Of a stretch of 36,809 bases of DNA, positions 2 to 36,576 are shown in pieces. The DNA lies in assembly GCF_004153545.1 (NCBI RefSeq), contig NZ_SDVA01000024.1, forward strand, positions 1 through 36,809. The letters run 5' to 3'. The notes beneath the pieces are model-generated. The model did not search any database, was not told the origin of the DNA, and saw only the letters and a program-made list of their open reading frames with translations. The stretch is from Serinicoccus sediminis. Lineage in GTDB: Bacteria > Actinomycetota > Actinomycetes > Actinomycetales > Dermatophilaceae. How positions within the stretch are numbered: position 1 is the stretch's first letter; every line of letters begins with the position of its first letter. The translations under genes were made by a program, and so were the position numbers.

Positions 2-1174
2 AGCCTGGAGTCCGCGGCGGCCGGCGAGCTGGCCGCGCGACGCCGCGCCGCCGAGCGTCGCGAGCGCCGCGCCCGGGAGCGGGCAACGGCGCAGGCGGTG
101 GGCGTGGGGGCGGCATACCTGCTGGAGCGCTGCGAGCAGGTCCTCGCCGCCGTCACGCAGGAGCGCGAGCGGGGGCGCGCCGAGCAGGCCGAGCGCGACC
201 AGGCGCTGGCCGCGGCCCGCCAGCGGGCCCGCGAGCTCGCCGACGACCTGCGCGACCCCACCGACTCGGTGCACGCCGACGAGATCGCCCGGGCCGAGCA
301 GCGACTGCGCATCGAGGCGCTGCAGGCGCGCTCGGTCGACGAGCTGGGGGTGTCGCCGGAGACGCTGGTGGAGGAGTACGGCCCGCACCTGCCGGTGCCG
401 CACATCCCCGGTCCTGACGACCCCGCGCCGGACGACCCGGACGCGGAGGCGCCGGAGCCGCAGCCCTTCGTCCGCGAGGTGCAGGACAAGCGGCTGCGCC
501 GGGCCGAGCGGCAGCTGGCCCAGCTGGGCAAGGTCAACCCCCTCGCGCTGGAGGAGTTCGCGGCGCTGGAGGAACGGCATACCTTCCTCACGGAGCAGGT
601 GGAGGACCTGCGGCGCTCCAAGGAGGACCTGCTGGAGATCGTCCGGTCGGTGGACGAACGGGTGGAGCGGGTCTTCACCGAGGCGTTCCACGACACCGCG
701 GCGCAGTTCGAGCGGGTGTTCTCGCGGCTCTTCCCCGGCGGTGAGGGGCGCATCACCCTGACCGACCCCGAGCACATGCTCACCACCGGCATCGAGGTGG
801 AGGCGCGGCCCCCGGGCAAGAAGATCAAGCGGCTCTCGCTGCTCTCCGGCGGCGAGCGCTCGCTCACCGCCGTGGCGCTGCTCGTCGCGATCTTCAAGGC
901 CAGGCCGAGCCCGTTCTACATCATGGACGAGGTCGAGGCGGCTCTGGACGACACCAACCTGGGGCGCCTCATCACGCTCTTCGAGGAGCTGCGCGACTCC
1001 AGCCAGCTCATCGTCATCACCCACCAGAAGCGGACCATGGAGATCGCCGACGCGCTCTACGGCGTGTCCATGCGCGGCGACGGCGTGACCACCGTCGTCA
1101 GCCAGCGGATCAAGGACGTCGCGGCCGACGGCGTCGAGCAGCCCACCCGCGACCCCGAGCCGGCGCCGGCGTGA
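2..1174 (+). CDS. smc: Chromosome segregation protein SMC, C-terminal part (5' end outside window)
   Basis: This is the C-terminal part of an SMC ATPase, which with ScpA/ScpB compacts and separates chromosomes. The reading frame is open from the window edge, so the N-terminal Walker A head, hinge and first coiled coil are missing. What remains starts in arginine/glutamate/alanine-rich coiled coil. It then reaches the C-terminal head: the ABC signature LSGGERS is encoded at about 842-862, and the Walker B segment FYIMDEVEAALDD begins at about 914. A D-loop and a switch histidine (ITHQKRTME) follow. A proline/acid-rich insert lies between coil and head (about 405-470). The stop overlaps the GTG start of the next gene (GTGA), suggesting translational coupling. 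Identity is seen directly; only the missing 5' part limits the call. Confidence 0.96.
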   Translation, partial: SLESAAAGELAARRRAAERRERRARERATAQAVGVGAAYLLERCEQVLAAVTQERERGRAEQAERDQALAAARQRARELADDLRDPTDSVHADEIARAEQRLRIEALQARSVDELGVSPETLVEEYGPHLPVPHIPGPDDPAPDDPDAEAPEPQPFVREVQDKRLRRAERQLAQLGKVNPLALEEFAALEERHTFLTEQVEDLRRSKEDLLEIVRSVDERVERVFTEAFHDTAAQFERVFSRLFPGGEGRITLTDPEHMLTTGIEVEARPPGKKIKRLSLLSGGERSLTAVALLVAIFKARPSPFYIMDEVEAALDDTNLGRLITLFEELRDSSQLIVITHQKRTMEIADALYGVSMRGDGVTTVVSQRIKDVAADGVEQPTRDPEPAPA

Positions 1175-1677
1175 CCGTCGTCTTCGGCGGCGCCGCGTTC
1201 CCCGCCTACGTCATCGACTCCGAGACCCTGCGTGAGGAGCTGCTCGACGAGGAGGAGACCCGGGAGTGGGTCGAGGAGACGCCCGAGGACCCGCACGCGG
1301 TCGCGCTGCTGCGGATGCTGGGCGAGCTCGACGCGGCGCTCGTCACGGGTCAGGACCGTCTGCACGAGCGCGAGCCCGGGACCCCGGCGTGGGCGACGGC
1401 CGCCGTCCGCCTGGCCCACGTGCACCACTGGCGCGCGGAGTTCGTCGACGCGCACGAGCTGCTGGACGCCGCCGAGGAGGTGCTGGCCGACGACGAGGCC
1501 CGGACGGCGCTGGTCCACCAGCACCGCGCCAAGGCGCTCTTCGACGAGGGGCGGTATGCCGAGGCGCACGCGGCCGCCGCCCGTGCCCTGGAGCTGCGCG
1601 AGCGCACCGGGGACGCGGGGCTCGTCGCCTCGACGCGGCAGGCCCTGGACCGGATCGCCCGGGAGCTGCCGGCCTGA
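1171..1677 (+). CDS. Hypothetical TPR-like protein downstream of smc
   Basis: The 168-residue protein starts at GTG 1171, overlapping the smc stop. I recognise no named family. The C-terminal two thirds consist of paired amphipathic helices with a tetratricopeptide-like rhythm: helix pairs around residues 80-115 (LAHVHHWRAEFVDAHELLDAA) and 115-150 (HQHRAKALFDEGRYAEAHAAAARAL), the second matching the TPR pattern with G, Y, A and A at the usual places. The N-terminal 50 residues are acidic. There is no signal peptide or membrane helix, so it should be cytosolic. TPR modules usually mediate protein contacts; a link to SMC is only suggested by the overlap. It contains one copy of the GGTATGCC word at 1553-1560. 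Confidence 0.85.
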   Translation: MTVVFGGAAFPAYVIDSETLREELLDEEETREWVEETPEDPHAVALLRMLGELDAALVTGQDRLHEREPGTPAWATAAVRLAHVHHWRAEFVDAHELLDAAEEVLADDEARTALVHQHRAKALFDEGRYAEAHAAAARALELRERTGDAGLVASTRQALDRIARELPA

Positions 1678-1699
1678 GCCGACCGTGCCGAGCCGGCCG

Positions 1700-1801
1700 G
1701 GCCGTGCGTCCGGAGCGTGCGGACCGTGCGTCCGGAGGGTGCGGACCGTGCGTCCGGAGCGTGCTGACCGAGCGTCTGGACGGTGCGGACCGTGCGTCCG
1801 G
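1700..1801 (+). repeat. Tandem array of about five 22-bp units
   Basis: Direct repeats run back to back with a 22-base period at 1700-1721, 1722-1743, 1744-1765, 1766-1787 and a partial unit at 1788-1801. The unit is close to GACCGTGCGTCCGGAG followed by SGTGCG; the fourth unit is the most diverged. At three of the junctions the arms CGGAC and GTCCG flank CGTGC, making a small perfect inverted repeat. The array fills much of the space between the TPR-like gene and the next gene. It could be an array of binding sites, a structured 3' end, or a simple slippage product. Confidence 0.9.
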
Positions 1802-1878
1802 TGTGAGGCCGCTCACGATCCGTGCGACACGCCCAGGACACGCCGGGGACGTGTTCGGTCCACCGCGACCAGGGGCGG

Positions 1879-1884: not shown

Positions 1885-1890
1885 GGGCGC

Positions 1891-2375: not shown

Positions 2376-2381
2376 GGGCCC

Positions 2382-3666: not shown

Positions 3667-5298
3667 GTGTTCACCAGCCTCTCCGACCGCCTGACGCAGA
3701 CCTTCCGCAACCTCAAGCGCAAGGGCACCGTCACCGAGTCCGACCTCAACTCCACCGTCCGTGACATCCGGATGGCTCTGCTGGACGCCGACGTGGCGCT
3801 GCCGGTGGTCAAGGAGTTCACCGGACGGATCCGTGAGCGGGGGCTCGGCGCGGAGGTCCACCAGGCGCTCAACCCGGCCCAGCAGATCGTCAAGATCGTC
3901 AACGAGGAGCTCGTCGCCATCCTCGGCGGCCAGACCCGCCGGCTCAACCTGGCCAAGAACCCTCCGACCGTCATCATGCTGGCCGGTCTGCAGGGCTCGG
4001 GCAAGACGACCTTCGCGGGCAAGCTCGGCAAGTGGCTGGCCGACCAGGGGCACACCCCGCTCCTCGTCGCCGCCGACCTGCAGCGCCCCAACGCCGTCAC
4101 CCAGCTCGAGGTGGTCGGTCAGCGCGCCGGTGTCCCCGTCTTCGCGCCCGAGCGCGGCAACATCTTCGGCCACGACGCGGCCCTGGACTCGGGGGAGGGG
4201 ACGCGCTCCTTCGGCGACCCCGTCGACGTGGCGGTGGACGGCGTCGAGGAGGCGCGGCGCAAGAGCCACGACGTCGTCATCATCGACACGGCGGGCCGAC
4301 TCGCGGTCGACGTCGACCTCATGCGGCAGGCGCACGACATCCGGCTGGAGACGCAGGCGGACGAGGTGCTCTTCGTCATCGACGCGATGATCGGGCAGGC
4401 GGCCGTGGAGACGGCCAAGGCCTTCGCCGACGGCGTCGGCATCACCGGGTCGGTGCTCTCCAAGCTGGACGGCGACGCGCGCGGTGGTGCCGCGCTCTCG
4501 GTGGCCACGGTGACCGGGCAGCCCATCCTTTTCGCCTCCACCGGGGAGGGCGTCAAGGACATCGAGCTGTTCCACCCCGACCGGATGGCCTCGCGCATCC
4601 TCGACATGGGTGACGTCCTGACCCTCATCGAGCAGGCCGAGCAGGCTTTCGACCAGGCGCAGGCGAAGGAGATGACCCGCAAGTTCCTCTCCGACGAGGA
4701 CTTCACCTTCGACGACTTCCTCGAGCAGATGTCGGCGATCAAGCGGATGGGTTCGCTGAAGCAGATGCTCGGCATGATGCCGGGGATGCAGGGCATGAAG
4801 GCGCAGCTGGACTCCCTGGACGAGCGCGAGTTCGACCGGGTCGAGGCCATGGTCCGGTCCATGACGCCGCTGGAGCGCGGCCACCCCAAGATCATCAACG
4901 GCTCGCGGCGAGCCCGGATCGCCCGCGGCTCGGGCGTGAGCGTCGGCGAGGTCAACCAGCTCATCGAGCGCTTCGGCGAGGCGCAGAAGATGATGCGCCA
5001 GCTCAAGAAGGGCGGCGGCATGCCCGGTATGCCGGGGATGCCCGGCATGGGTGGCGCCGGCGGGGCCAGGAAGGGCAAGGCCCCGCAGCGCAAGAAGGGC
5101 AAGTCGGGCAACCCGGCCAAGCGCGCCCAGCAGGAGCGGGACGCCGAGGCCAGGCAGCAGGCGGCGCGGGAGAAGTCCTTCGAGAGCGCCTTCGGGGCGG
5201 GGGCGGCCGGGGCCGACGACGCCGCGGAGGGACAGGACCTGTCCGGGCTGAAGCTGCCCCAGGGCTTCGAGAAGTACCTCGACGGCGGCAAGGGCTGA
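3667..5298 (+). CDS. ffh: Signal recognition particle protein Ffh
   Basis: Ffh is the protein subunit of the bacterial signal recognition particle: it binds 4.5S RNA and signal sequences and docks to FtsY. The 543-residue protein has the N domain (residues 1-90) and a G domain with P-loop GLQGSGKTTF starting at residue 107. It also has DTAGRL, a TGSVLSKLDGDARGG guanine-binding region, and a methionine-rich M domain (about 325-455) with the QMLGMMPGMQ finger-loop type motif. After the M domain comes a repetitive GMPGMPGMPGMGG stretch and a basic tail, ending in a segment (LKLPQGFEKYLDGGKG) that is common in actinobacterial Ffh. The gene for 4.5S RNA is not in this window. GTG 3667 is the start that begins the family's usual MFTSLSDRL N-terminus. 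Confidence 0.97.
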   Translation: MFTSLSDRLTQTFRNLKRKGTVTESDLNSTVRDIRMALLDADVALPVVKEFTGRIRERGLGAEVHQALNPAQQIVKIVNEELVAILGGQTRRLNLAKNPPTVIMLAGLQGSGKTTFAGKLGKWLADQGHTPLLVAADLQRPNAVTQLEVVGQRAGVPVFAPERGNIFGHDAALDSGEGTRSFGDPVDVAVDGVEEARRKSHDVVIIDTAGRLAVDVDLMRQAHDIRLETQADEVLFVIDAMIGQAAVETAKAFADGVGITGSVLSKLDGDARGGAALSVATVTGQPILFASTGEGVKDIELFHPDRMASRILDMGDVLTLIEQAEQAFDQAQAKEMTRKFLSDEDFTFDDFLEQMSAIKRMGSLKQMLGMMPGMQGMKAQLDSLDEREFDRVEAMVRSMTPLERGHPKIINGSRRARIARGSGVSVGEVNQLIERFGEAQKMMRQLKKGGGMPGMPGMPGMGGAGGARKGKAPQRKKGKSGNPAKRAQQERDAEARQQAAREKSFESAFGAGAAGADDAAEGQDLSGLKLPQGFEKYLDGGKG

Positions 5299-6498: not shown

Positions 6499-7079
6499 TG
6501 GCGGCGCGGTTCACGCGGGCCGAGCTCGACTTTTTCCGCGGTGCGCACGTCCCGGACCTGCTGCCGGGGCCTGACGGCCCGCCGCTGCGGCTGCTCTTCG
6601 TGGGCATCAACCCGGGCCTGTGGACGGCGGCGACGCAGACCCACTTCGCCCACCCGGGCAACCGGTTCTACCCCGCCCTGGAGCGGGCGGGCATCATCGG
6701 CCGGCCGGTCGACCCCGCCGCGGGGATGAGCGCGGAGGACCGGGACCACCTCCTGCAGCGGGGGATCGGCATCACCAACCTCGTGCGCCGTGCCAGCGCC
6801 CGGGCCGACGAGTTCACCCCGGAGGAGCTGCGCGAGGGGGCGACGCGGCTGGCGCGGACGGTGCGTCGGGCCCGACCCGCGGTGGTCGCCGTCGCCGGGA
6901 TCACGGCATACCGCGGGGCGTTCGGGGCGCGAGGGGCGGCGGTGGGCCGTCAGCCCACCGACCTGGAGGGTGCCCAGCTGTGGGTGGTGCCGAACCCCAG
7001 CGGGCTCAACGCCCACGAGACCGTCGACTCCCTGGCCCGGGCCTACGCCGAGCCCGCCCGGGCGGCCGGCCTGCGGTGA
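6498..7079 (+). CDS. mug: Mismatch-specific uracil/thymine-DNA glycosylase, Mug family
   Basis: The protein would remove uracil, or ethenocytosine-type lesions, from mispaired DNA as the first step of base excision repair. The 193-residue sequence carries both family motifs: GINPG at residues 36-40, in the loop that positions the catalytic water with Asn38, and NPSGLN at 166-171, the intercalation loop. The size matches Mug/TDG proteins of about 170-200 residues. ATG 6498 shares its first base with the stop of the peptidase gene (TGATG), so the two are translationally coupled. One GGCATACC word lies in it at 6905-6912, encoding Ala-Tyr with a rare GCA codon. Family assignment is firm; substrate preference is not visible. 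Confidence 0.92.
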   Translation: MAARFTRAELDFFRGAHVPDLLPGPDGPPLRLLFVGINPGLWTAATQTHFAHPGNRFYPALERAGIIGRPVDPAAGMSAEDRDHLLQRGIGITNLVRRASARADEFTPEELREGATRLARTVRRARPAVVAVAGITAYRGAFGARGAAVGRQPTDLEGAQLWVVPNPSGLNAHETVDSLARAYAEPARAAGLR

Positions 7080-8593: not shown

Positions 8594-8627
8594 GGGCACG
8601 GCATACCGGCGACGAAGGAGACGCGAC

Positions 8628-11455: not shown

Positions 11456-12760
11456 TCAGTGGAACTGCTCGGACTCGGTGGAGCCGGACAGGGCCGTCGT
11501 CGACGACTCGGGGTTGACCGCGGTGCTCACCGCGTCAAAGTACCCGGTGCCGACCTCGGCCTGGTGCCGCACGGCGGTGTAGCCGGAGGGCGCGGACGCG
11601 AACTCCGCCTCCTGCAGCTCGACGTAGGCGCTCATGCCGCTGCGGGCATACCCCTGGGCCAGGGTGAACATCGAGTGGTTCAACGCGTGGAAGCCGGCCA
11701 GGGTGATGAACTGGAAGGCGTAGCCCAGGTCGCCCAGCTCGTCCTGGAAGGCGGCGATGTCGGCGTCCGACAGGGCCGCCCTCCAGTTGAACGACGGGCT
11801 GCAGTTGTAGGCCAGCTTCTGGTCCGGGAAGTCGCGGTGCAGCTCCTGGGCGAACTCCCGGGCGAGCCCCAGGTCGGGGGTACCGGTCTCGACCCAGATG
11901 AGGTCGGCGTAGGGGGCGTAGGCCTTGGCGCGGGCCAGGACCGGTTCGATGCCGTTGCGGACCCGGAAGAAGCCCTCCGACGTGCGCTCCCCGGTGGTGA
12001 ACTCCTGGTCGATCTCGTCGACGTCGCTGGTCAGCAGGTCGGCGGCCAGCGCGTCGGTGCGGGCGATGACGACCGAGGGGACACCCAGCACGTCGGCCGC
12101 GAGACGGGCCGAGCTCAGGGTGCGGACGTGCTGGCCGGTCGGGATGAGCACCTTGCCGCCCAGGTGGCCGCACTTCTTCTCCGAGGCGAGCTGGTCCTCC
12201 CAGTGCACCCCGGCGGCACCGGCCGCGATCATCGACTTCATCAGCTCGAAGACGTTGAGCGGGCCGCCGAAGCCCGCCTCCGCGTCGGCCACGATCGGCA
12301 CGAAGTAGTCGGTGCTCGTGTCGCCGTCCATCCAGGCGATCTGGTCCGCGCGCTGCAGCGCGTTGTTGATGCGACGCACGACCGCGGGCACCGAGTTGGC
12401 CGGGTAGAGGCTCTGGTCGGGGTAGGTCTGGCCGGCCAGGTTGGCGTCGGCGGCGACCTGCCAGCCGGAGAGGTAGATCGCCTCGAGCCCGCCCTTGACC
12501 ATCTGGACGGCCTGGTTGCCGGTGAGGGCACCCAGCGCGCGGGTGAAGGGCTTGGTCTCCAGGGCCTCCCACAGCCGCTCGGCCCCGCGGCGGGCCAGGG
12601 TGTGCTCCTCGACCACGGAGCCGCGCAGCCGCACGACGTCCTGCGCGGTGTAGCGCCGCTCGACACCGGACCAGCGGGGGTTGCTCCGCCAGTCCTGCTC
12701 GATCTCCAGCGCCTGGGCGGCGGCCGGGGTGGTCTCGGTGGGCTGGGTGGTGATGGTCAT
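11456..12760 (-). CDS. aceA: Isocitrate lyase
   Basis: Isocitrate lyase splits isocitrate into succinate and glyoxylate, diverting carbon from the decarboxylating steps of the TCA cycle during growth on acetate or fatty acids. The 434-residue protein contains the catalytic signature KKCGH at residues 195-199 with Cys197 as the general base. It also contains [12 protein letters not shown] and YNCSPSFNW, all typical of the short bacterial form. ATG 12760 is preceded by GAGGAGAGGGG, a strong ribosome binding site. It is divergent from the RamB-like regulator with 120 bases between the starts, the arrangement expected for direct control. A GGCATACC word at 11645-11652 encodes Gly-Tyr-Ala with a rare TAT codon. 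Confidence 0.97.
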
Positions 12761-12874: not shown

Positions 12875-12880
12875 GGAGGT

Positions 12881-14437
12881 ATGCCGTCCTCCGCCGGTCG
12901 CGTGCTGCCGTTCCGCCCGTCCGAGCGCCTGGACGGCACCGACACCGGGGCCGCGGGGTCCGCCGACCCGGTCGCGGTGGGGCGCCGTCTGCGGCACGCG
13001 CGGCGCGAGGCCGGGATGACCCTGGCCACGCTGGCCGCCCGCACCGGGCTGTCCGCGTCGGCCCTGTCGCTCATCGAGAACGGCCGCAGGGAGGCGCGGG
13101 TGTCCACCCTGGAGCAGCTGGCCGGGGCGCTGGGGGTCGAGCTCATGGCGCTGCTGGCCGGCGGGCCGCCGAGCAGGCGCGCCGCGCTGGAGGTCCGGTG
13201 GGAGCGGGCGCAGCGGGCCGAGGGCTTCCAGACGCTCGGCATCCCGCCGGTCCGGGTGGGTCCGGGCCTGCCCGACGACGCCCTGGAGGCTCTGGTCGGG
13301 CTCTACGAGAGCGTCGTGGGGCTGCAGCAGCAGCGGGCCGCGACCCCGGAGTTCGCCCGCCTCGCCAACGCCGAGCTGCGGGCGCGCATGCGTGCGGCCG
13401 GCAACTACTTCAGCGAGATCGAGGCGGCCGCGGCCGGGCTCGTGGGGCGGGCCGGGCATACCCGTGGGCCCGTCTCCCGGGAGGTCGTCGAGCGGGTCGC
13501 CCGGCACGTGGGCTTCGAGGTCGTCACGGTGCCGGACGTCCCGGCGTCGACCCGCACCGTCACCGACCTCGCGCACCACCGCATCTACCTCCCGGCCAGC
13601 GGCGCGCACGACCCCCGGGCCGCGGCGCTGCAGGCGCTCGGGCACGTCGTGCTGGGCCATGAACCGCCGCGTGACTACGCCGAGTTCCTCGCCCAGCGGG
13701 TCGAGATCAACTACTTCGCGGCCGCCGCCCTGATCCCCGAGAGCACCGCCGTCCCGCTGCTGCGCCAGGCCAAGGTGGACCGGGACATCGCGGTGGAGGA
13801 CCTGCGGGACGCCTACGCCGTGTCCTACGAGACCGCGGCCCACCGGTTCTGCAACCTCGCCACCGAGCACCTGGACCTGCAGGTCCACTTCATGCGGACC
13901 AGCGCCGACGGCGTCATCTACAAGGCCTACGAGAACGACGGGGTGCGCTTCCCGATGGACGCCTCCGGCGCCATCGAGGGAGCCCGGGTGTGCCGCTCCT
14001 GGACCGCGCGGGTGGTCTTCGACCGGCCCACCGGGGAGGTCTACCACCAGTACACCGACACCGGGCGGGGGACGTACTGGTGCACGGCGGTCGCCGAGCC
14101 CACCTCCGCCGGCCTGTTCTCGGTCAGCGTCGGCGTGCCCTACGACCAGGTGCGGTGGATGCGGGGACGGGACACCCGTGAGCGGCGGGTGTCCCGCTGC
14201 CCCGACCCGCGGTGCTGCACCCGGCCGCCGGCGGACCTCGCGCGGGAGTGGGACGGGCAGGTCTGGCCCAGCGCGCGGGCCCACTCCCACCTGCTCGCGG
14301 TGATGCCCCCCGGGGTCTTCCCCGGCGTGGACGACACGGAGGTGCTCCGCTTCGTGGCCGAGCACGCGCCCCGACCGGACGGGCCCGGTCGGGACGAGGG
14401 CGCGGATCCGGCGCCGACGACGGATGTGGCACAATGA
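12881..14437 (+). CDS. RamB/ScfR-type XRE transcriptional regulator of acetate metabolism
   Basis: The 518-residue protein has an XRE helix-turn-helix at residues 31-95 ([20 protein letters not shown] and [10 protein letters not shown]). A long middle part follows, ending in an IrrE-like segment with [10 protein letters not shown]. The C-terminal domain has the cysteine-containing sequence CPDPRCC and is typical of the short-chain fatty-acid regulator family. In Corynebacterium, RamB of this architecture binds next to aceA and aceB and represses them in the absence of acetate; the divergent position here fits the same role by inference. The ATG start lies inside a GGTATGCC word (12878-12885), and a second copy is at 13455-13462. 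The -10 element TATCGT is six bases upstream, so the mRNA is probably leaderless. Confidence 0.93.
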
Positions 14438-15923: not shown

Positions 15924-15928
15924 GGGGT

Positions 15929-16645
15929 ATGCCGCTGCGCCTCGACGTCGTCACCATCTTCCCCGAGTACCTCGCCCCCCTGGAGCTGTCGCTCCTGGGC
16001 CGCGCCCGTCGCGAGGGCCTGCTGGAGGTGCACGTGCACGACCTGCGGGACTGGACCCACGACCGGCACCGCACCGTCGACGACACGCCGTACGGCGGCG
16101 GGGCGGGCATGGTCATGCGGCCCGAGCCGTGGGGGGAGGCGCTGGACGCCGTCTGCACCGCACTGCCGGGCCGCACGCCCCACCTCGTCGTGCCCGGCCC
16201 CGGCGGCGACGTCTTCACCCAGGACGTCGCGGCCCGGCTGGCGGCGCAGGAGGACTGGCTGGTCTTCGTCTGCGGGCGCTACGAGGGCATCGACGAGCGG
16301 GTCTACGACGAGTTCGCCGCGCGCTACCCGCTCAGCGTGCTCAGCCTCGGCGACTACGTGCTCAACGGCGGCGAGGTCGCCGTGCTCGCGATGACCGAGG
16401 CGGTGGCGCGGCTGCTGCCGGGCATGGTCGGCAACGAGGCCTCACTGCTCGAGGAGTCGCACACCGGGGGACTGCTGGAGTACCCCGTCTACACCAAGCC
16501 GGCCACCTGGCGGGGGCACGACGTGCCCGAGGTGCTCCTGTCCGGGCACCACGGCCACATCGCCGCGTGGCGCCACGAGCAGCGGCTGCGGCGCACCGCC
16601 GAGCGCCGCCCGGACCTCATGGCCCGCTACGAGGCCGACCGCTGA
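15929..16645 (+). CDS. trmD: tRNA (guanine-N1)-methyltransferase TrmD
   Basis: TrmD methylates G37 of tRNAs with SAM, preventing +1 frameshifting. The 238-residue protein begins [11 protein letters not shown], has [17 protein letters not shown], and carries the trefoil-knot SAM site in [11 protein letters not shown] and [30 protein letters not shown] follows, all diagnostic of SPOUT-class TrmD. I chose ATG 15929, which gives the family N-terminus and sits after GGGGGAGTGAGG; GTG 15920 would overlap the rimM stop and add three residues. The start codon lies inside a GGTATGCC word (15926-15933). The stop codon is buried in the long hairpin shared with serB. Confidence 0.97.
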
Positions 16646-20286: not shown

Positions 20287-20664
20287 ATGGACGACGGGGG
20301 TATGCCGTGGGCTACGGCTCGGGCGGTGGGTGACCGGGGGGAGGACCTCGTGTGCACCTACCTCGAGGGGCTCGGCTGGGCGGTGCTGGACCGCAACTGG
20401 CGCTGCCCGGACGGGGAGCTGGACGTCGTGGCGCGGGATGGTGAGCAGCTGGTCTTCTGCGAGGTGAAGACGCGTCGCTCGACCCGCTTCGGCGAGCCGG
20501 TGGAGGCGGTGGGCCGGGACAAGGCGCACCGTCTGCGGCGGCTCGCCTGGGCCTGGCTGGAGGCTCACGGGCAGCGGGGCGCGGCCTTCCGGATCGACGT
20601 CGTGGGCCTGCTGAGCCCGCCGGACGGTCCGCCCCGGCTCACCCACCTGCAGGCGGTCGCCTGA
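20287..20664 (+). CDS. yraN: YraN/UPF0102 family nuclease-fold protein
   Basis: The 125-residue protein has the restriction-endonuclease-like core of UPF0102: RGEDLVCTYLEGLGW, NWRCPDGELDVVA with the conserved E-x-D, and LVFCEVKTRRS with the E-x-K. It is thought to be a nuclease related to Holliday-junction resolvases, but the biochemical role in actinobacteria is unsettled. I chose ATG 20287 because GAGGAGGGGG lies right before it; ATG 20302, inside a GGTATGCC word (20299-20306), is an alternative that would remove five residues. Its stop overlaps the comM start (TGATG). The 129 bases before it hold a small GACCGG/CCGGTC hairpin and nothing else I can name. Confidence 0.93.
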   Translation: MDDGGMPWATARAVGDRGEDLVCTYLEGLGWAVLDRNWRCPDGELDVVARDGEQLVFCEVKTRRSTRFGEPVEAVGRDKAHRLRRLAWAWLEAHGQRGAAFRIDVVGLLSPPDGPPRLTHLQAVA

Positions 20665-22193: not shown

Positions 22194-23299
22194 GGCACGA
22201 GGAACGTCGCGCCCGCGTCCTGCTGTCCCGGCTGGCCGAGCCCTACGACGAGCGGGTGCAGCAGGTGGTGGCCGAGCACGGGGTCGAGGCGGTGGTGGGG
22301 TACGCCCTGCGTGACGGCCGGGCCCCCGGCGGGGTGGACCTCGCGCGGCTCGCCACACGGGTCGAGCGGGCGCGCTCGGTCGACGACGAGCGCATCGCGG
22401 GCCGTCTGGGCGCCCGCATCCTCGTCCCGGGCGACCCGGAGTGGCCCGACGACCTGGACCAGCTCGAGCACCCGCCCTGGTGCCTGTGGGTGGCCGGCCC
22501 CGGGGACCTCGCCGCCCTGGCCGAGCGCAGCGTGGCCGTCGTCGGGGCGCGCGCCAGCACGGCCTACGGCGACCACGTCACCGCCGGTCTCTGCGTCGAC
22601 CTGGTCGCCCGGGGGTTCACCGTCGTGTCGGGAGCCGCCTTCGGCATCGACGCGACCGCCCACCGTGCGACCCTGTCGGCCGACGGGTCGACGGTGGCGG
22701 TGCTGGCCGGCGGGGTGGACGTGCCCTACCCCCGGGCCAACACCGAGCTCATCGACCGCATCCGCCGGACCGGTGCGCTGGTCAGCGAGACGCCCCCCGG
22801 TGGTGCGCCGGCCCGCATGCGGTTCCTCGCCCGCAACCGCATCATCGCCGGCGTGGCCCGCGGCACGGTGGTCGTGGAGGCCGGCCTGCGCTCGGGGGCG
22901 CGCTCGACGATGAAGTACGCGCGCGACCTGGGGCGGCCGGTCATGGCGGTCCCCGGGTCGGTCGAGAGCCTCCTGTCGCAGGGGTCGCACGCGGAGATCC
23001 GGATGGGCGCGGAGCTGATCACGGACGGTGCCGAGGTGGCCGAGCTGGTGGGCCGTATCGGGGACGACCTCGCCCCGCCCAAGCACGGCCCGGTGCAGGT
23101 CGCCGACGGACTGCCCGAGGACCTGCGACGGGTGTGGCAGTGGCTGCGGCCGCGCTCCTCCAGCGTCGTGGACGAGGTCATGGCGCGGTCGGGCCTCAGC
23201 CTGCGCGAGACCCTCGGCGCCTTGCGCCAGCTGGAGCACCAGGGCCTGGCGGAGGAGCTGCTCGACGGGTGGCAGCGTCGCCCGACGGGGGCGCGATGA
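22190..23299 (+). CDS. dprA: DNA-processing protein DprA
   Basis: DprA loads RecA on incoming single-stranded DNA in transformation; it is also kept in species not known to transform. The 369-residue protein has an N-terminal helical (SAM-like) region to about residue 75, then the Rossmann-like core: SVAVVGARASTAYGDHV, VVSGAAFGIDATAHRATL, TVAVLAGGVDVPYPRANTEL, SETPPGGAP, FLARNRIIAG and MAVPGSVESLLSQGSH. It closes with a winged-helix DML1-like domain at about 305-360. It starts at ATG 22190 inside the end of comM, and its stop overlaps the M23 gene start (ATGA). Family assignment is certain; whether it acts in uptake here is open. Confidence 0.97.
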   Translation: MRHEERRARVLLSRLAEPYDERVQQVVAEHGVEAVVGYALRDGRAPGGVDLARLATRVERARSVDDERIAGRLGARILVPGDPEWPDDLDQLEHPPWCLWVAGPGDLAALAERSVAVVGARASTAYGDHVTAGLCVDLVARGFTVVSGAAFGIDATAHRATLSADGSTVAVLAGGVDVPYPRANTELIDRIRRTGALVSETPPGGAPARMRFLARNRIIAGVARGTVVVEAGLRSGARSTMKYARDLGRPVMAVPGSVESLLSQGSHAEIRMGAELITDGAEVAELVGRIGDDLAPPKHGPVQVADGLPEDLRRVWQWLRPRSSSVVDEVMARSGLSLRETLGALRQLEHQGLAEELLDGWQRRPTGAR

Positions 23300-24027: not shown

Positions 24028-25002
24028 TCACGCCCGCGGGTGAGCCTGCTGGTAGGCGGAGCGCAGCCGCTCCAGCGAGACGTGGGTGTAGATCTGGGTC
24101 GTCGCCAGGCTCGCGTGCCCCAGCAGCTCCTGCACGGTGCGCAGGTCTGCACCACCCTCCAGCAGATGGGTGGCGGCGCTGTGCCGCAGCCCGTGCGGGC
24201 CCAGGGGCGGCGTGTCGGGCAGGTGGGTCAGCAGGTCCTGCAGGGTGGAGCGGACCTGCCGCTGGTCCACCCGCCGTCCGCGCCGTCCCAGGAAGAGCGC
24301 GGGACCCGACTCGGCCGTCACGAGGCACGGTCGACCACCGTCCAGCCAGGCGGCGGTGGCCACGGTCGCGGGGTCACCGAAGGGCACGATGCGCTCCTTG
24401 TCGCCCTTGCCGAGCACCCGGGCGGTGCCCTCCCGGAGGTCGACGTCGTCCACGTCCAGCCCGGTCAGCTCGCCGACCCGCATCCCGGAGGCGTAGAGCA
24501 GCTCCAGCATGGCCCGGTTGCGCAGGTGGACCGGGTCCTCGTCGTCGGCAGCGACGGCCGCCAGCTCCATGAGGGCACCGGCCTGGGGGGCGCGCAGCAC
24601 CCCGGGCAGGTGGGCGTCCTTGCCCGGGGCGAGCAGGCGCAGCGAGGGGTCGGTCGCCAGACGACCGGTGCGCTGGGCCCACCGGAAGAAGGTCTTGGCA
24701 CTCGCCGCGCGGCGGGACACGCTGGAGCGTGCGGCCCCGCTGCCGCCCAGACCGGCCAGCCACGCCCGCAGGTCGGCCAGCCGCACCGCGGCGGCCTCCG
24801 GCACCCCACGCCCGGACAGGAAGGCGTCCAGAGCCCTCAGGTCGGCGAGGTAGGCACGCACGGTGTGGGGCGAGCGGCCCTTCTCGACCCTCAGGTGCTG
24901 CGCGAAGTCCACCAGCAGCTGGTCGTCGAGGACGTCAGGGCCGTCCGCCTCACCGGGCCGGTCGTGGTCCGGGGGCGCGCTGGGCGAGGCGTCGGGCGGC
25001 AT
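24028..25002 (-). CDS. xerC: Tyrosine recombinase XerC
   Basis: XerC with XerD resolves chromosome dimers at dif. The 324-residue protein has the N-terminal SAM-like core-binding domain (residues 25-115) and a catalytic domain. All catalytic residues are visible: Arg175 (SGMRVGEL), Lys199 or 202 (GKGDKER), His270 and Arg273 ([10 protein letters not shown]), His296 ([10 protein letters not shown]) and the nucleophile Tyr305 (IYTHVS). The start is ATG 25002, 13 bases after the aminotransferase stop, so the two probably share a transcript. The start codon lies inside a GGCATACC word (24998-25005). Family and activity are firm; XerC rather than XerD is inferred from its position next to the dprA region and rpsB. 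Confidence 0.94.
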
Positions 25003-25015
25003 ACCACCGAGCCTG

Positions 25016-26179
25016 TCAGGCGCTGCCGAGGCGCTGCAGGCGGCGCGCCGCCTCCCGCAGCACGTCGTCCTGCTTGCAGAAGGCGAAGCGCACCAGGCTG
25101 CGCACCGGCTCGGGGTCCTCGCAGAAGACGGAGACCGGCACGCCGACCAGGCCCAGCTCCTCGGGCATGCGCCGGCAGAAGTCCACCGCGTCCTCCACCC
25201 CGTGCCCGGCCAGGTCGGCGATGACGAAGTAGCTGCCCTGGCACGGGCTGACCGGTACACCGACCTCGTCGAGCGCCTCGACCAGCAGGTCCCGCTTGTC
25301 CTGCAGCTGCCGGGCGAAGCCGTGGAAGAACGCGTCCGGCATCCCGAGCCCGTGGGCGACCGCCGGCTGCACGTGCGTCACCCCGACGAAGGTGAGGAAC
25401 TGCTTGACCGCCGCGACCGCGTCCACCAGCTCGGCCGGGCCGCTGACCCAGCCGGTCTTCCACCCGGTGAGCGAGAAGGTCTTGCCCACGGAGGAGATGG
25501 TCAGCGTGCGCTCGGCCATCCCGGGGAGGGTCGCGATCGGGGTGTGCCGGTGGCCGTCGAAGACGAGGTGCTCGTAGACCTCGTCGGACACGACGACCAG
25601 GTCGTGCTCCCGGGCGACCGCGGCGACCCCCTGGAGCTCGGTGGTGGTGAAGACCTTCCCGGTCGGGTTGTGGGGGGTGTTGAGCACGAGGACGCGCGTC
25701 CGGTCGGTGACGGCGGCGCGCAGCGCGTCGAGGTCGAGCCGCAGGTCGGGGAAGCTCAGCTGCACGCTGCGCCGCACCCCGCCGGCCATCGCGACCGCGG
25801 CGCCGTAGGAGTCGTACGACGGCTCGATGACCAGCACCTCTTCGCCAGGTTCGACGAGCGCGATGAGGGAGGCCGCGATCGCCTCGGTCGCGCCGACCGT
25901 GACGAGCACCTGCGTCTGCGGGTCCAGGGGTATGCCGTACCACCGCTCCTGGTGCTCGGCCACCGCCTCGCGCAGCACGGGGAGGCCACGGGCCGGGGCG
26001 TACTGGTTGAGCCCGTCCTGCAGGCCGCGCGCCGCCAGGTCCCGCATCTCCTGCGGCCCGTCGGTGTCCGGGAAGCCCTGCCCCAGGTTGACCGCGTCGA
26101 ACTGCAGGGCGCGCTGGGTCATCTCCGCGAAGACGCTGGTGCCGAAGGGCTGGAGTCGCTGCACGAGGGGATCGCTCAT
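25016..26179 (-). CDS. Class I/II PLP-dependent aminotransferase (DapC-like)
   Basis: This 387-residue fold-type I aminotransferase has [13 protein letters not shown] near the N-terminus, [10 protein letters not shown], the PLP-contacting [11 protein letters not shown] (Asn), [12 protein letters not shown] (Asp and Tyr), and the Schiff-base lysine in [16 protein letters not shown]. The closing arginine is in VRFAFCKQ. It most resembles N-succinyldiaminopimelate or kynurenine/glutamine-type transaminases; sequence alone does not settle the substrate. It is led by a leaderless promoter, with TACCGT six bases before ATG 26179, and is followed by xerC. A GGTATGCC word at 25929-25936 forces an ATA codon for Ile in a Gly-Ile-Pro. 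Confidence 0.9.
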
Positions 26180-30795: not shown

Positions 30796-31656
30796 ATGAC
30801 CGAGCCGACCACGCGGCGCGCGGCGCGGGCCGCCGGGCGTCCGGCGGCCGGGCGGACCCCCCGTGCGGGCCGGGATCTCCCGGCGGCCATCGGGGTCGGC
30901 GTCGGGCTCGTCCTCGTCATCCTCGCGAGCCTGGTGTTCTGGAAGCCCGCGTTCGTCTACCTCGTGAGCGCCGCGGTGCTGGTGGGCGTCTGGGAGCTGG
31001 ACCAGGCGCTGCGCAGCGGACGGGTGGACCCGCCCCGCGTGCCGGTCTTCGCCTCCGTCGGCCTCGTCCCGCTCGCCTACTACGGTGGCGCCGACGCCCT
31101 GGCGGTCGGTTTCGCCGCCGCGACGGCTCTGGTGCTGCTGTGGCGCAGCGTCGGCGCGCCCCGGGACGCCGCGCGGGACGTCGCCGCCGGTGTCTACGTC
31201 GTCGCCTACGTCCCGCTGCTGGCCGCCATCACCTCGCTCATGCTGGCGCAGCCGGACGGCGTCGGGCGGATCATCACCTTCATCCTGGTCACCGTGGCCT
31301 CGGACACCGGGGGGTATGCCGTCGGCGTGCTCCGTGGGCGCACCCCCATGTCGCCCTCGCTGTCGCCGAAGAAGTCCTGGGAGGGCTTCGCCGGGTCGGT
31401 CGGCACCAGCGCGGTGGTCGGCGCCGCGTGCGTGGTGCTGCTGCTGGACGGGGCGTGGTGGGCGGGCCTGGTCGTCGGTGCCTTCGCCGCGGCCTTCGCC
31501 ACCGTGGGCGACCTGGCCGAGTCGGCGATCAAGCGCGACCTCGGCATCAAGGACATGGGCAGCATCCTGCCCGGGCACGGCGGGGTGATGGACCGGCTGG
31601 ACTCGCTCGTGGTGACCGCACCCGTCTGCTGGGCGCTGCTGCACGTGCTGGTCTGA
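30796..31656 (+). CDS. cdsA: Phosphatidate cytidylyltransferase CdsA
   Basis: CdsA makes CDP-diacylglycerol from phosphatidic acid and CTP, the precursor of all phosphoglycerolipids. The 286-residue protein has a basic cytosolic N-terminus of about 33 residues followed by several membrane helices. The family signature runs from SPKKSWEGFAGSVG through SAIKRDLGIKDMGSILPGHGG to MDRLDSL, with the conserved Asp residues. ATG 30796 lies 28 bases after frr. A GGTATGCC word at 31313-31320 encodes Gly-Tyr-Ala with a TAT codon. Membrane integral; assignment firm. Confidence 0.96.
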   Translation: MTEPTTRRAARAAGRPAAGRTPRAGRDLPAAIGVGVGLVLVILASLVFWKPAFVYLVSAAVLVGVWELDQALRSGRVDPPRVPVFASVGLVPLAYYGGADALAVGFAAATALVLLWRSVGAPRDAARDVAAGVYVVAYVPLLAAITSLMLAQPDGVGRIITFILVTVASDTGGYAVGVLRGRTPMSPSLSPKKSWEGFAGSVGTSAVVGAACVVLLLDGAWWAGLVVGAFAAAFATVGDLAESAIKRDLGIKDMGSILPGHGGVMDRLDSLVVTAPVCWALLHVLV

Positions 31657-31680: not shown

Positions 31681-32856
31681 ATGACGACGCAGCTCCCCAC
31701 CCCGACCGCAGACCGCCCCGCCCCCGGCCAGCTCACCTTCCGGGCCCCGCGCCGGGGCAAGGCCCCCACCCATCTCGCCGACCACGACCTGGCCGGGCGC
31801 AAGGAGTGGGCCACCGAGCTCGGCATACCGGGCTTCCGCGCCGACCAGGTGAGCCGGCACTACTTCGAGCGGCTGGTGACCGACCCCGACCAGATGACCG
31901 ACCTGCCCAAGGCCGGCCGGCAGGAGCTCGTCGGGGGCCTGCTGCCCACCCTGCTCACCCCGGTCCGGACGCTGTCGGCTGACGACGGCGCCACGCTCAA
32001 GCAGGTGCACCGGCTGCACGACGGGGCCATGGTCGAGTCGGTCCTCATGCGCTACCCGGGGCGGGTGACGATGTGCATCTCCAGCCAGGCGGGGTGCGGC
32101 ATGAACTGCCCGTTCTGCGCCACGGGCCAGGCCGGGCTCACCCGCAACCTGTCGACGGCGGAGATCGTCGAGCAGGTCGTCGCCGCCGCGCGGGCGCTGC
32201 GGCACGGTGAGCTGGCCGGGGGAGAGGACGAGGGCGGCGCCGCCGAGCAGGTGCGGGTCAGCAATGTGGTCTTCATGGGCATGGGCGAGGCGCTGGCCAA
32301 CTACAAGGCGTCGCTCGCGGCGATCCACCGGCTCATCGACCCGTCCCCGCACGGCCTCGGCATGTCCGCGCGGGGTGTGACGATGTCCACGGTCGGCCTC
32401 GCGCCGGCCATCGACAAGCTGGCGGGGGAGGGCCTGCCGGTCACCCTGGCCCTGTCGCTGCACGCGCCGGACGACGAGCTGCGGGACGAGCTGGTGCCGA
32501 TCAACACCCGCTGGAAGGTCGACGAGGCCCTGGACGCGGCGCGCCGCTACTTCGAGGCCACCGGCCGCCGGGTGTCCATCGAGTACGCCCTCATCCGGGA
32601 CATCAACGACCAGGCCTGGCGGGCCGACCTGCTCGGCGAGAAGCTCAACGCCCGCGGTCGTGGCTGGGTGCACGTCAACCCCATCCCGCTCAACCCCACG
32701 CCGGGGAGCAAGTGGACCGCCTCCCGCCGCGGGGTCGAGCAGCAGTTCGTCGAGCGGCTGCTGGCGCACGGCATCCCCACGACGGTGCGCGACACCCGCG
32801 GCTCCGACATCGACGGCGCCTGCGGGCAGCTCGCCGCGACCGCCGACCCCTCCTGA
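31681..32856 (+). CDS. rlmN: Dual-specificity RNA methyltransferase RlmN
   Basis: RlmN is a radical-SAM enzyme that methylates C2 of A2503 in 23S rRNA and of A37 in some tRNAs. The 391-residue protein has a helical N-terminal domain and the radical SAM motif C-x3-C-x2-C at Cys139, Cys143 and Cys146 ([10 protein letters not shown]). GMGEALANY binds SAM. A further cysteine near residue 382 (DGACGQLA) is the acceptor of the covalent adduct. ATG 31681 is 24 bases after cdsA. A GGCATACC word at 31822-31829 makes Gly-Ile-Pro with a rare ATA codon. The usual next gene dxr is not found in the window. Confidence 0.96.
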
Positions 32857-34232: not shown

Positions 34233-36149
34233 ATGAGCGACGACGCCACGACGCAGCAGGCCTACCGCGAGCAGGTCGCCTCGAGCCTCTCCGACCCTGC
34301 GGCCTTCTGGGGGCAGGCGGCAGGGGCCATCGACTGGATCCGACGGCCCCGGGAGGTGCTGGACGCCTCGGGCGCCCCGTTCTACCGCTGGTTCCCGGAC
34401 GGGACCCTCAACGTCTGCTACAACGCCCTGGACCGGCACGTGGTGCACGGCCGGGCCGACCAGACAGCGCTCGTGCACGACAGCCCGGTCACCGGCACGC
34501 TGCGCCGCTACACCTACGCCGAGCTGCTCGACCTGGTGGCGCGGTTCGCCGGCGTGCTGCGTGACCTCGGCGTGGGCAAGGGCGACCGGGTCGTCGTCTA
34601 CCTCCCCATGGTGCCCGAGGCGGTCATCACCATGCTGGCCTGCGCGCGCATCGGGGCGGTGCACTCGGTCGTCTTCGGCGGATTCGCGCCCGCCGAGCTG
34701 GCCGCCCGCATCGAGGACGCCCGGCCCACGGTCGTCGTCTCCGCCAGCTGCGGCATCGAGCCGAACCGCGTGGTGCCCTACAAGCCGATGCTCGACGAGG
34801 CCATCGCGCGCTCGGCGCACCAGCCCGACCACTGCGTCATCCTGCAGCGCGAGCAGCTGACCTGCGAGATGGGGGAGCGGGACCTCGACTGGGCCCGGCT
34901 GATGCATCCGGACGCGGTGGCCCCGGCCGCCTGCGTGCCCGTGGAGGCCACGCACCCGCTCTACGTCCTCTACACCTCCGGCACGACCGGGCGCCCCAAG
35001 GGCATCGTCCGGGACAGCGGCGGGTATGCCGTCGCCCTGCGCTGGTCGATGACCCACCTCTACGGGGTGCAGCCGGGGGAGACGTGGCTGTGCGGCTCCG
35101 ACGTCGGCTGGGTGGTCGGACACTCCTACATCGTCTACGCGCCGCTGCTCACCGGGGCCACGACGATCCTCTTCGAGGGCAAGCCAGTCGGCACGCCGGA
35201 CGCCGGGGCCTACTGGCGGATGATCGCCGAGCACCGGGCGGTCGCCGCCTTCACCGCCCCGACGGCGATCCGGGCGATCAAGAAGCAGGACCCGGAGGCG
35301 AGCCTCGTCGGTGACCACGACCTGTCCTCGCTGCGCGCGCTCTTCCTCGCCGGCGAGCGCCTGGACCCGGACACCTGGCGGTGGGCCTCCGAGCACCTCG
35401 GGGTGCCTGTGATCGACAACTGGTGGCAGACCGAGACCGGGTGGCCCATCGCCATCAACCCGGTCGGACCGGACGGTGCCCTCCTCGACATCCGCCCCGG
35501 CAGCCCCGGGCTGCCGACTGCGGGCTACGACGTGCGGGTGCTGGACGAGCGCGGGCAGGAGGTGCCCGCGGGGACCGAGGGGGCGATCTGCCTGCGGCTG
35601 CCGCTGCCGCCGGGCACGCTGCCGACGCTCTGGCAGGACGACGAGCGCTACGTCTCCTCCTACCTGTCCGCCTACGACGGCTACTACCTCTCGGGGGACG
35701 GGGGCTACCTCGACGAGGACGGCTACGTCTTCGTCATGGGCCGCACCGACGACGTCCTCAACGTGGCCGGCCACCGGCTCTCGACCGGTGCGCTGGAGGA
35801 GGCCCTGGCGGGGCACCCCGCGGTCGCCGAGTGCGCCGTCATCGGTGTGGCCGACGACCTCAAGGGGCAGGTGCCACGCGCTCTGGTCGTGCTCAAGTCG
35901 GGCGCGGACCCGGACGCGGCCGGCGAGCGGCAGCTGCAGGAGGAGCTGGTCGCGCGGGTGCGGGCCGAGGTCGGCCCGGTGGCCTCGCTGCGCCGGGTGG
36001 ACGTCGTCGACGCGCTGCCCAAGACCCGCTCGGGCAAGATCCTGCGTCGGACGATGCGGCAGATCGCCGACGGCGACACCCCCATGGTGCCCTCGACGAT
36101 CGAGGACGTCGGCGTCCTCGACGAGCTGCGGCCCGTGCTGCGGGGATAG
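34233..36149 (+). CDS. prpE: Propionyl-CoA synthetase-like acyl-CoA synthetase
   Basis: This ANL-superfamily enzyme makes acyl-CoA from a short-chain acid, ATP and CoA; by length (638 residues) and sequence it is closest to PrpE (propionyl-CoA synthetase) and its acetyl-CoA synthetase relatives. Motifs in order: VVYLPMVPEAVITMLACARIGAVHSVVFGGF; the P-loop YTSGTTGRPKG; the substrate-pocket NWWQTETGWPI; GDGGYLDEDGY; and the C-terminal PKTRSGKILRR with the catalytic, acetylatable lysine. ATG 34233 is six bases after a weak -10-like TGTGAT (34221-34226). A GGTATGCC word at 35023-35030 sits next to the P-loop. Propionate rather than acetate as substrate is inferred, not proven. Confidence 0.88.
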   Translation: MSDDATTQQAYREQVASSLSDPAAFWGQAAGAIDWIRRPREVLDASGAPFYRWFPDGTLNVCYNALDRHVVHGRADQTALVHDSPVTGTLRRYTYAELLDLVARFAGVLRDLGVGKGDRVVVYLPMVPEAVITMLACARIGAVHSVVFGGFAPAELAARIEDARPTVVVSASCGIEPNRVVPYKPMLDEAIARSAHQPDHCVILQREQLTCEMGERDLDWARLMHPDAVAPAACVPVEATHPLYVLYTSGTTGRPKGIVRDSGGYAVALRWSMTHLYGVQPGETWLCGSDVGWVVGHSYIVYAPLLTGATTILFEGKPVGTPDAGAYWRMIAEHRAVAAFTAPTAIRAIKKQDPEASLVGDHDLSSLRALFLAGERLDPDTWRWASEHLGVPVIDNWWQTETGWPIAINPVGPDGALLDIRPGSPGLPTAGYDVRVLDERGQEVPAGTEGAICLRLPLPPGTLPTLWQDDERYVSSYLSAYDGYYLSGDGGYLDEDGYVFVMGRTDDVLNVAGHRLSTGALEEALAGHPAVAECAVIGVADDLKGQVPRALVVLKSGADPDAAGERQLQEELVARVRAEVGPVASLRRVDVVDALPKTRSGKILRRTMRQIADGDTPMVPSTIEDVGVLDELRPVLRG

Positions 36150-36199
36150 CCCGCGCCGTCGCCTGTGGACAACCCGGGCCGGCTGTCGGCCGCGGGGCC

Positions 36200-36205
36200 T
36201 AGCCT
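36200..36205 (+). promoter_or_regulatory. Possible -10 element before the WXG-like pair
   Basis: TAGCCT fits TANNNT and lies 50 bases upstream of ATG 36256. The leader includes GAGGGGG as ribosome binding site at about 36242-36248. Confidence 0.35.
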
Positions 36206-36255
36206 CGGGGGTAGTCGGGTGACCGTGCCCGGCGGGACACCGAGGGGGTGCACGC

Positions 36256-36576
36256 ATGGGGTATGCCGTGCGCGTGGACGGCGACCACCTGGACGTCGCG
36301 GCCGGGGAGCTGACGGGTGCCGCCGAGGCGCTGGAGGGCGCCGCCGAGGGGGTCGCCCGGGCGCTGGGCGCGGTCGCCGCCGGCGGCGGGGGCGGTCTGC
36401 TGGCCGGAGCGGCGCAGGACGCCGCCTGGCGGTGGCGCAGGGGCCTGCGCCAGGTCGCCGCTCACGGGAGGACGCTCTCCGTCGCGCTGTCGGAGGCCCG
36501 CTCCGACTACGTCGAGGTGGAGCGGCTGCTCACCGGTGGGTGGGCGAGGGGCCCCCGGACGGGGCTGGTGCCGTGA
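36256..36576 (+). CDS. Small helical protein, possible type VII secretion partner
   Basis: The 106-residue protein has an N-terminal beta-like start (MGYAVRVDGDHLDVAAGEL) followed by two long alanine-rich helices separated by a glycine run (about residues 52-60), then WRWRRGLRQVAAHGRTLSVALSEARSDYVEVE. Size and helix-turn-helix plan match WXG100-like or ESX-type substrate partners, and the initial residues resemble those of actinobacterial type VII targets. There is no true WxG at the turn, so this is a structural suggestion only. The stop overlaps the next start (GTGA), so the two proteins are made together. The start covers a GGTATGCC word (36260-36267). Confidence 0.6.
   Translation: MGYAVRVDGDHLDVAAGELTGAAEALEGAAEGVARALGAVAAGGGGGLLAGAAQDAAWRWRRGLRQVAAHGRTLSVALSEARSDYVEVERLLTGGWARGPRTGLVP

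What the first reader, a model, noticed from the sequence alone, without database searches (positions are those of the whole stretch)
112..36267. A strongly over-represented DNA word, GGTATGCC, is scattered through the window on both strands
I count 19 exact copies (10 in one orientation, 9 in the other), with consensus GGGTATGCCGT. A simple composition model at roughly 73% GC gives about one expected copy. Inside genes the word falls in all three frames, encoding G-Y-A or R-Y-A, A-Y, G/R-H-T, G-M-P and G-I-P. It accounts for nearly every TAT and ATA codon I can find, in genes that otherwise avoid them. This means selection acts on the DNA, not the protein. The related palindrome GGCATGCC is not enriched (about two copies), so the asymmetric form matters. 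Possible roles: uptake sequence, nucleoid-protein or segregation site, modification-enzyme target, or recombination signal.
Basis: partly seen in the sequence, partly recalled or inferred. Interest (0 to 1): 0.8.

Follow-up and report, generated by a model that had tools for sequence, protein, structure and literature searches.

The report
Family-wide strand-aware genomic DNA word
A short DNA word is repeated over a thousand times in this actinobacterium and up to several thousand times in its relatives, and copies on the same DNA strand avoid each other within about 1,000 bases, which points to a self-recognition tag for DNA exchange or repair in a Gram-positive group.

Summary
In detail: 19 GGTATGCC in the window (10 +, 9 -; 0.3-0.6 expected). 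The genome, an Ornithinimicrobium by its Ffh, holds 1,363 copies. The better core is GTATGCCG. Of 149 genomes of its family, 85 have at least 300 copies (maximum 4,724) and 54 have fewer than 150. None of 183 genomes from 18 other families of the order shows it. Two related genera lack it and carry another word, CGAAGGGGG, at similar density: dialects.

New here: copies on the SAME strand exclude each other up to about 900 bp (132 pairs against 290 expected), while copies on OPPOSITE strands ignore each other (341 against 314). This held in each of four genomes. The same test gave nothing for a Haemophilus-type USS sample and a weaker effect for a Neisseria DUS sample.

Best reading: a DNA-uptake/transformation mark read on one strand, in a monoderm (about 0.5). 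Main rival: a Chi-like signal for a helicase-nuclease other than RecBCD (about 0.22). No reader protein was found: comEA/comEC, Tad genes and RecC do not separate word-rich from word-less genomes, which weakens both.

The parts
112..119 (-). word copy GGTATGCC
576..583 (-). word copy GGTATGCC
1553..1560 (+). word copy GGTATGCC
   Evidence: kept as GTATGCC in 1 of 2 aligned relatives
5026..5033 (+). word copy GGTATGCC, in the C-terminal part of ffh
6905..6912 (-). word copy GGTATGCC
8600..8607 (-). word copy GGTATGCC
11645..11652 (-). word copy GGTATGCC; TAC synonym in G199, G208, G145, G127
12878..12885 (+). word copy GGTATGCC overlapping the ATG of an ORF with HTH_3 and Peptidase_M78 domains
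13455..13462 (-). word copy GGTATGCC
15926..15933 (+). word copy GGTATGCC near the start of the tRNA (guanine-1) methyltransferase gene
17079..17086 (-). word copy GGTATGCC; TAC synonym in G104, G199
19188..19195 (+). word copy GGTATGCC; TAC synonym in G119
20299..20306 (+). word copy GGTATGCC, in UPF0102 gene
24998..25005 (-). word copy GGTATGCC
25929..25936 (+). word copy GGTATGCC, inside an aminotransferase gene on the other strand
31313..31320 (+). word copy GGTATGCC
31822..31829 (-). word copy GGTATGCC, inside the RlmN-like radical SAM gene
35023..35030 (+). word copy GGTATGCC
36260..36267 (+). word copy GGTATGCC
20664..22193 (+). ComM/YifB-type gene (Mg_chelatase, ChlI); context only, a transformation-linked family by general knowledge
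21722..23299 (+). open frame holding DprA (DNA_processg_A at residues 229-434); true start probably near 22190 (inference); context only

Best explanation
GTATGCCG (sub-dialect GGTATGCC in Ornithinimicrobium) is a self-DNA mark for genetic exchange: a short asymmetric word that raises the chance that DNA of the own kind is taken up or recombined during natural transformation, and which therefore multiplies in the genome by molecular drive, as DUS and USS do in Neisseriaceae and Pasteurellaceae. Unlike those, it appears to be read on one strand. I propose that the word sets which single strand is processed or imported (or where it is nicked) and that two words on the same strand closer than about 900-1,000 bp interfere, for instance by cutting the usable single strand too short, while words on the other strand belong to a separate substrate. 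Shown: the enrichment, its family limits, the second word in two genera, DNA-level conservation in close relatives, strand balance, same-strand exclusion with opposite-strand independence, near-absence from one prophage, and that comEA, comEC, Tad genes and dprA exist.
For: 1,363 copies against 18 of the reversed word; 85 of 149 family genomes with at least 300 copies, equal on both strands (85,944 and 86,103 in total). Density 1 per 1.1-2.1 kb in four sampled genomes (976 GTATGCC in 1.557 Mb), like DUS (about 1.1-1.5 kb, matching conversion-tract length; passages of PMC2397512) and USS (about 1 kb; passages of PMC7811141). No polarity. Convergent pairs under 50 bp in excess (18 against 8.9), several with extended complementary arms, like DUS terminators. 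Only 2 copies in the 40.4 kb prophage stretch where about 19 would be expected at the sample's density. A second word in g38 and g39, 11 of 149 genomes with 1,265-1,939 copies, where GTATGCCG is 7-41, grouped together at 99/98 and nested among word-rich genomes in a ComEC tree: dialect switch. The word lost in single species of word-rich genera (G069 in g26, G125 in g36), easier for competence than for an essential repair signal. ComEC in 145 of 149, T2SSF (Tad-type) in 146 of 149; dprA and a comM-type gene lie in the window. Same-strand exclusion: 132 pairs against 290 within 900 bp, opposite 341 against 314.
Against: No experiment shows uptake or even competence in these species. ComEA and ComEC matched in 20 of 20 compared loci, 7 of them from word-less genomes, and Tad genes are near-universal, so the machinery does not track the word. 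No receptor was found; PilM-type pili are in only 5 of 149. The exclusion pattern is not what an orientation-blind double-strand receptor predicts (opposite-strand copies should repel too), nor one-sided coverage (divergent pairs should repel: 163 against 157). The USS sample shows no orientation effect and the DUS sample a weaker, shorter one, so the arrangement is not simply that of known uptake sequences. The second word shows the exclusion weakly or not at all (36 same, 51 opposite, z -1.6; G037 alone 15 and 15). More distant relatives keep few of the window's copies (G199 2 of 10, G145 1 of 7, G127 1 of 6; controls 0.33-0.42), although G145 and G127 hold 899 and 1,865 GTATGCCG.
Confidence: 0.5

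Rival explanations
1. Chi-like recombination signal: a helicase-nuclease other than RecBCD (AdnAB would be the candidate in actinobacteria; from general knowledge) reads the word on one strand from one direction and switches from degradation to recombination. A second word in the same orientation soon after is redundant; words in the opposite orientation serve the opposite DNA end.
For: It predicts exactly same-orientation redundancy with opposite-orientation independence for both convergent and divergent pairs. Known Chi words differ between lineages (general knowledge), so dialects fit.
Against: No replication polarity, which E. coli Chi has (general knowledge). RecC, part of the Chi-reading enzyme of E. 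coli, is in 27 of 85 word-rich and 29 of 54 word-poor genomes. Complete loss in single species beside word-rich sisters is odd for a repair signal. AdnAB and AddAB were not searched for. I did not test whether Chi itself shows the exclusion.
Confidence: 0.22
2. Another strand-specific chromosomal function: a nicking, priming, modification or nucleoid site acting about once per kilobase per strand, unrelated to gene exchange.
For: Even, strand-wise spacing; strand counts more equal than chance in the 20 kb samples (P of so low a chi-square 0.015, 0.003, 0.07, 0.07).
Against: Patchy presence within one family and within genera g26 and g36 is unexpected for a core chromosomal function; if sites were nicked in the chromosome, close opposite-strand copies should be avoided, and they are not.
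Confidence: 0.16
3. Mutational or repair bias: a site-specific enzyme turns neighbouring words (for example GGCATGCC or GTACGCCG) into this one without selection or drive.
For: GGCATGCC is depleted in word-rich genomes (26 against 102 in G000) and GTACGCCG falls to 3 against 8.9 in G068.
Against: GGCATGCC is also low in some word-less genomes (G083 0 against 10.5, G069 2 against 6.4). The deficit of GGCATGCC in G000 is far smaller than the excess of the word (26 against 94 in both-strand counts, about 34 palindromic sites, against about 263 extra words). A mutation process would not know whether the last word on the same strand lies within 900 bp.
Confidence: 0.05

Closest known systems
DNA uptake sequence (DUS) of Neisseriaceae
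   Same: Short asymmetric word, about one per 1-2 kb on both strands, no polarity, inverted pairs as likely terminators, dialects between genera, low in a mobile element.
   Different: Gram-positive high-GC host without PilM-type pili in most genomes; same-strand exclusion reaching about 900 bp with a 1:2 to 1:3.5 same:opposite ratio, against 72:102 in the DUS sample, where it is visible only under 500 bp; no receptor known.
Uptake signal sequence (USS) of Pasteurellaceae
   Same: Density, both strands, two word types within one family (passages of PMC12616744).
   Different: No orientation effect in the USS sample here (24 same, 21 opposite) and none on uptake in H. influenzae (passages of PMC1939737).
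Chi sites (RecBCD/AddAB)
   Same: Asymmetric octamer read on one strand from one direction; would give same-orientation redundancy.
   Different: No replication polarity; no link with RecC.
KOPS and similar FtsK/SpoIIIE orienting sequences
   Same: Short asymmetric overrepresented words.
   Different: Those are replichore-polar; this word is balanced in each 20 kb sample.
HIP1 of cyanobacteria
   Same: Family-wide, unexplained overrepresented octamer.
   Different: HIP1 is palindromic, so it cannot have strand-specific spacing (HIP1 sequence from general knowledge).

Membership tests
DNA uptake sequence (DUS/USS) | Asymmetric word of 8-12 bp, strongly enriched genome-wide, about one per 1-2 kb | tested here: met
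DNA uptake sequence (DUS/USS) | Both strands, no replication polarity | tested here: met
DNA uptake sequence (DUS/USS) | Inverted pairs, some as terminators | tested here: met
   convergent pairs under 50 bp 18 against 8.9; complementary arms seen; termination itself not tested
DNA uptake sequence (DUS/USS) | Depleted from recently acquired DNA | tested here: met
   one prophage only: 2 in 40.4 kb
DNA uptake sequence (DUS/USS) | Competence machinery in the carriers | tested here: inconclusive
   present but equally in word-less genomes; comEC of the window's own strain is split by a prophage
DNA uptake sequence (DUS/USS) | Word raises uptake of DNA by the cell | not testable with these tools
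   needs an uptake or transformation assay
DNA uptake sequence (DUS/USS) | Cognate surface receptor (ComP- or ComN-type minor pilin) | not tested
   no receptor search by homology was run; PilM_2 only in 5 of 149 genomes
DNA uptake sequence (DUS/USS) | Orientation of copies relative to each other does not matter (seen in the USS sample; a usual rather than a defining feature) | tested here: not met
Chi site | RecBCD reader in the carriers | tested here: not met
   RecC in 27 of 85 word-rich genomes; other helicase-nucleases not tested
Chi site | Orientation bias with replication (as in E. coli) | tested here: not met
Chi site | Word stops degradation and stimulates recombination | not testable with these tools
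   needs biochemistry
KOPS-type orienting sequence | Replichore polarity | tested here: not met
HIP1-type palindrome | Palindromic octamer | tested here: not met
   GTATGCCG and GGTATGCC are not palindromes

The most novel reading that the evidence does not exclude
A third, and the first Gram-positive, lineage with a genome-wide self-DNA recognition word and dialects, whose reader works on one strand: each strand carries its own self-avoiding array with a spacing floor of about 0.9 kb, the signature of a single-stranded unit of DNA transfer or repair written into the genome.
Probability: 0.45. Interest if true: 0.9.

Novelty: new variant of a known kind. Interest (0 to 1): 0.82.

Why it matters
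The strand-specific spacing offers a direct, sequence-only read-out of the physical unit (about 1 kb of one strand) on which an exchange or repair process acts, and can be tested at once in Haemophilus, Neisseria and E. coli Chi with complete genomes.

Tried and rejected
Replication polarity: rejected. An early impression of polarity in G081 and G105 came from the order in which places are listed, + strand first, and was dropped.

Gene association: ComEC 145 of 149, T2SSF 146 of 149, PilM_2 5 of 149, RecC 60 of 149; none separates word-rich from word-poor genomes. ComEA/ComEC loci of 20 genomes: matched in all 20, ComEC in one frame in 19.

Substitute words in word-less genomes: G083 and G069 have none of like strength; in G088 a GTCGAGTAGGTGC-type repeat is clustered (16 copies of GAGTAGG, all in one of four 20 kb stretches) and not a dialect.

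Hypermutation from GGCATGCC: the deficit is too small and also occurs in word-less genomes.

Codon context as the cause of the exclusion: among 7-mers of like abundance the word ranked 2 of 851, 1 of 491, 3 of 554 and 2 of 339 for lowest same-strand share; ahead of it were overlapping sub-words and one unrelated, less paired word each in G119 and G068. Two control words in G000 and one in Janibacter showed no exclusion. The TAC synonym GTACGCC showed none in G000 (9 same, 7 opposite) but is too rare in the other genomes.

Rows dropped: sites closer than 60 bp to another were left out; USS and DUS loci were reduced from 120 to 74 and from 120 to 87 by removing near-duplicates. These USS/DUS loci come from provirus contigs found through inverted word pairs, so they are not a fair sample of chromosomes; contig hosts were not checked.

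Literature: searches found no report of this word or of uptake words in actinobacteria in the held library (preprints and most subscription papers absent). Karlin 1996 was not held, so what it says about USS+ and USS- spacing was not checked.
Full report
What was checked. The window holds 19 exact GGTATGCC, 10 on + and 9 on -, against 0.28 in dinucleotide shuffles and 0.57 by a second-order Markov model. Its Ffh protein (3667-5298) is 87% identical to that of Ornithinimicrobium tianjinense, the best of the loci returned, and the genome holds 1,363 copies (698 + 665), against 18 for the word read backwards. In 758 kb of that genome the count is 277 against 14.2 (order 2) and 14.4 (order 3); orders 4 and 5 give 131 and 272, but they contain the word's own hexamers and so cannot test it. 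A within-gene synonymous-codon shuffle leaves 37.6 of 281 copies in the genome sample, 3.6 of 16 in the window, 18.1 of 120, 11.4 of 123 and 15.3 of 100 in three relatives (crude gene calls).

The true core. In Janibacter sp. HTCC2649 (340 kb in 17 evenly spaced samples) GTATGCCG occurs 242 times against 6.1 expected, and 241 of 245 GTATGCC are followed by G, with no strong preference before it. In the window's genome a G precedes in 283 of 385 and follows in 329 of 385; in another Ornithinimicrobium (G119) G follows in only 100 of 163. So the core is GTATGCC(G) with sub-dialects. Information beyond positions 1-10 is slight.

Distribution. Among 149 genomes of the family (53 genera) GTATGCCG ranges from 7 to 4,724 copies; 85 genomes in 31 genera have at least 300, 10 have 150-299, and 54 have fewer than 150; genera g26 and g36 hold both extremes. 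The reversed word is also raised in some rich genomes (ratio down to 2.5 in g16), so the excess there is smaller. Of 198 genomes drawn from the order, 183 belong to 18 other families; none exceeds 167 copies, and that one has 184 of the control. Named outsiders (Arthrobacter, Kocuria, Nocardioides, Streptomyces and others) are near control for GGTATGCC, as are Mobilicoccus and Kytococcus inside the family.

A second word. Two genera without the first word (g38, 3 genomes; g39, 8 genomes) carry CGAAGGGGG 1,265-1,939 times, against at most 80 in the other 138 genomes and about 11-34 for the control in those 11. A tree of ComEC from 20 genomes groups g38 with g39 (99/98) inside a clade otherwise made of word-rich genera and the word-less g2 (root by midpoint only; one gene, which can itself be exchanged). 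I read this as one dialect switch and several losses. In G144 the second word occurs in 149 places in 234 kb as GAAGGGG, with hairpin pairs and near-equal strand counts.

Conservation. Aligning the window to nine congeners, exact GTATGCC is kept at 14 of 17, 16 of 17, 12 of 15, 12 of 14 and 6 of 8 aligned copies in G206, G139, G119, G104 and G047, against 0.49-0.63 for other 7-mers with three A/T. In more distant congeners this is not so: G208 5 of 9, G199 2 of 10, G145 1 of 7, G127 1 of 6 (controls 0.33-0.42), although G145 and G127 are word-rich by the core: positions turn over. At 11645, 17079 and 19189 the changed copy in at least one relative uses the TAC synonym.

Strand-specific spacing. 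This is the new finding. For GTATGCC in four genomes (77 stretches, 1.557 Mb, 976 copies), pairs on the same strand within 900 bp number 132 against 290 expected (0.46; bins 0.18-0.71), rise to 0.89 at 900-1,000 bp and about 1 beyond; opposite-strand pairs are 178 (convergent) and 163 (divergent) against 157 each. Shuffling strand labels over fixed positions gives z of -5.0, -5.4, -3.5 and -4.2 for G000, Janibacter, G119 and G068. Among 7-mers of like abundance the word ranks 2 of 851, 1 of 491, 3 of 554 and 2 of 339 for the lowest same-strand share. The same test on Haemophilus-type USS (184 single copies, 74 loci) gives 24 same and 21 opposite, and on Neisseria DUS (384 single copies, 87 loci) 72 and 102 (z -2.4, seen only below 500 bp); both samples come from provirus contigs. 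The second word gives 36 and 51 (z -1.6), so the exclusion is not established for it.

What the spacing says. A receptor that binds duplex DNA in either orientation should make opposite-strand copies redundant too; they are not. A tract extending one way from each copy should make divergent pairs redundant; they are not. A process that treats each strand as its own substrate fits: either a strand-specific step of transformation (choice, nicking or import of one strand, with interference between close copies on it), or a Chi-like signal read from one direction. I put transformation at about 0.5 and Chi-like at about 0.22.

Side evidence on competence. The window itself carries a ComM/YifB-type gene and dprA. 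In this strain comEC is split by a stretch of 40.4 kb with a serine recombinase, terminase, portal, capsid and tail genes holding 2 copies of the word, where the sample's density would give about 19. The word-less G069 has its ComEC match in two frames, while six other word-less genomes compared have it in one.

Known kinds. DUS and USS share density, strand balance, inverted pairs and dialects (passages of PMC2397512, PMC7811141 and PMC12616744; part 1 of 3 of PMC2346458). Orientation had no effect on uptake in H. influenzae (passages of PMC1939737). The 2025 statement that only Neisseriaceae and Pasteurellaceae are known for motif-specific uptake is in PMC12616744. That Micrococcus luteus is transformable by an Flp-pilus-dependent route was seen only in a search listing.

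Noticed in passing
G000:C46:68541-108976 (L129-L131): A siphophage-like prophage with a serine recombinase splits comEC of the window's own strain; no direct repeat of 12 bp or more was found at the two junctions.
   Followed up: partly
G095:C158:130641-131348, G117:C6:461781-462485: In these genomes the best Competence-domain match also begins at profile position 29-30, as in the prophage-split comEC of G000; comEC may be a recurrent integration site.
   Followed up: no
L179 (G069:C1:102000-116000): comEC of the word-less G069 matches in two reading frames with a change near residue 600; could be a sequencing error.
   Followed up: partly
L166 (G088:C1:1000001-1020000): 16 copies of GAGTAGG within a longer conserved repeat (about ACGGTGGTCGAGTAGGTGCGGAGCG), 8 per strand, clustered in one 20 kb stretch.
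   Followed up: no
window:12881-14437: ORF with HTH_3 and Peptidase_M78 (ImmA/IrrE-like) domains whose ATG lies inside a word copy.
   Followed up: no
window 20158-23299: UPF0102, ComM/YifB-type and DprA genes in a row, a transformation-linked neighbourhood.
   Followed up: no
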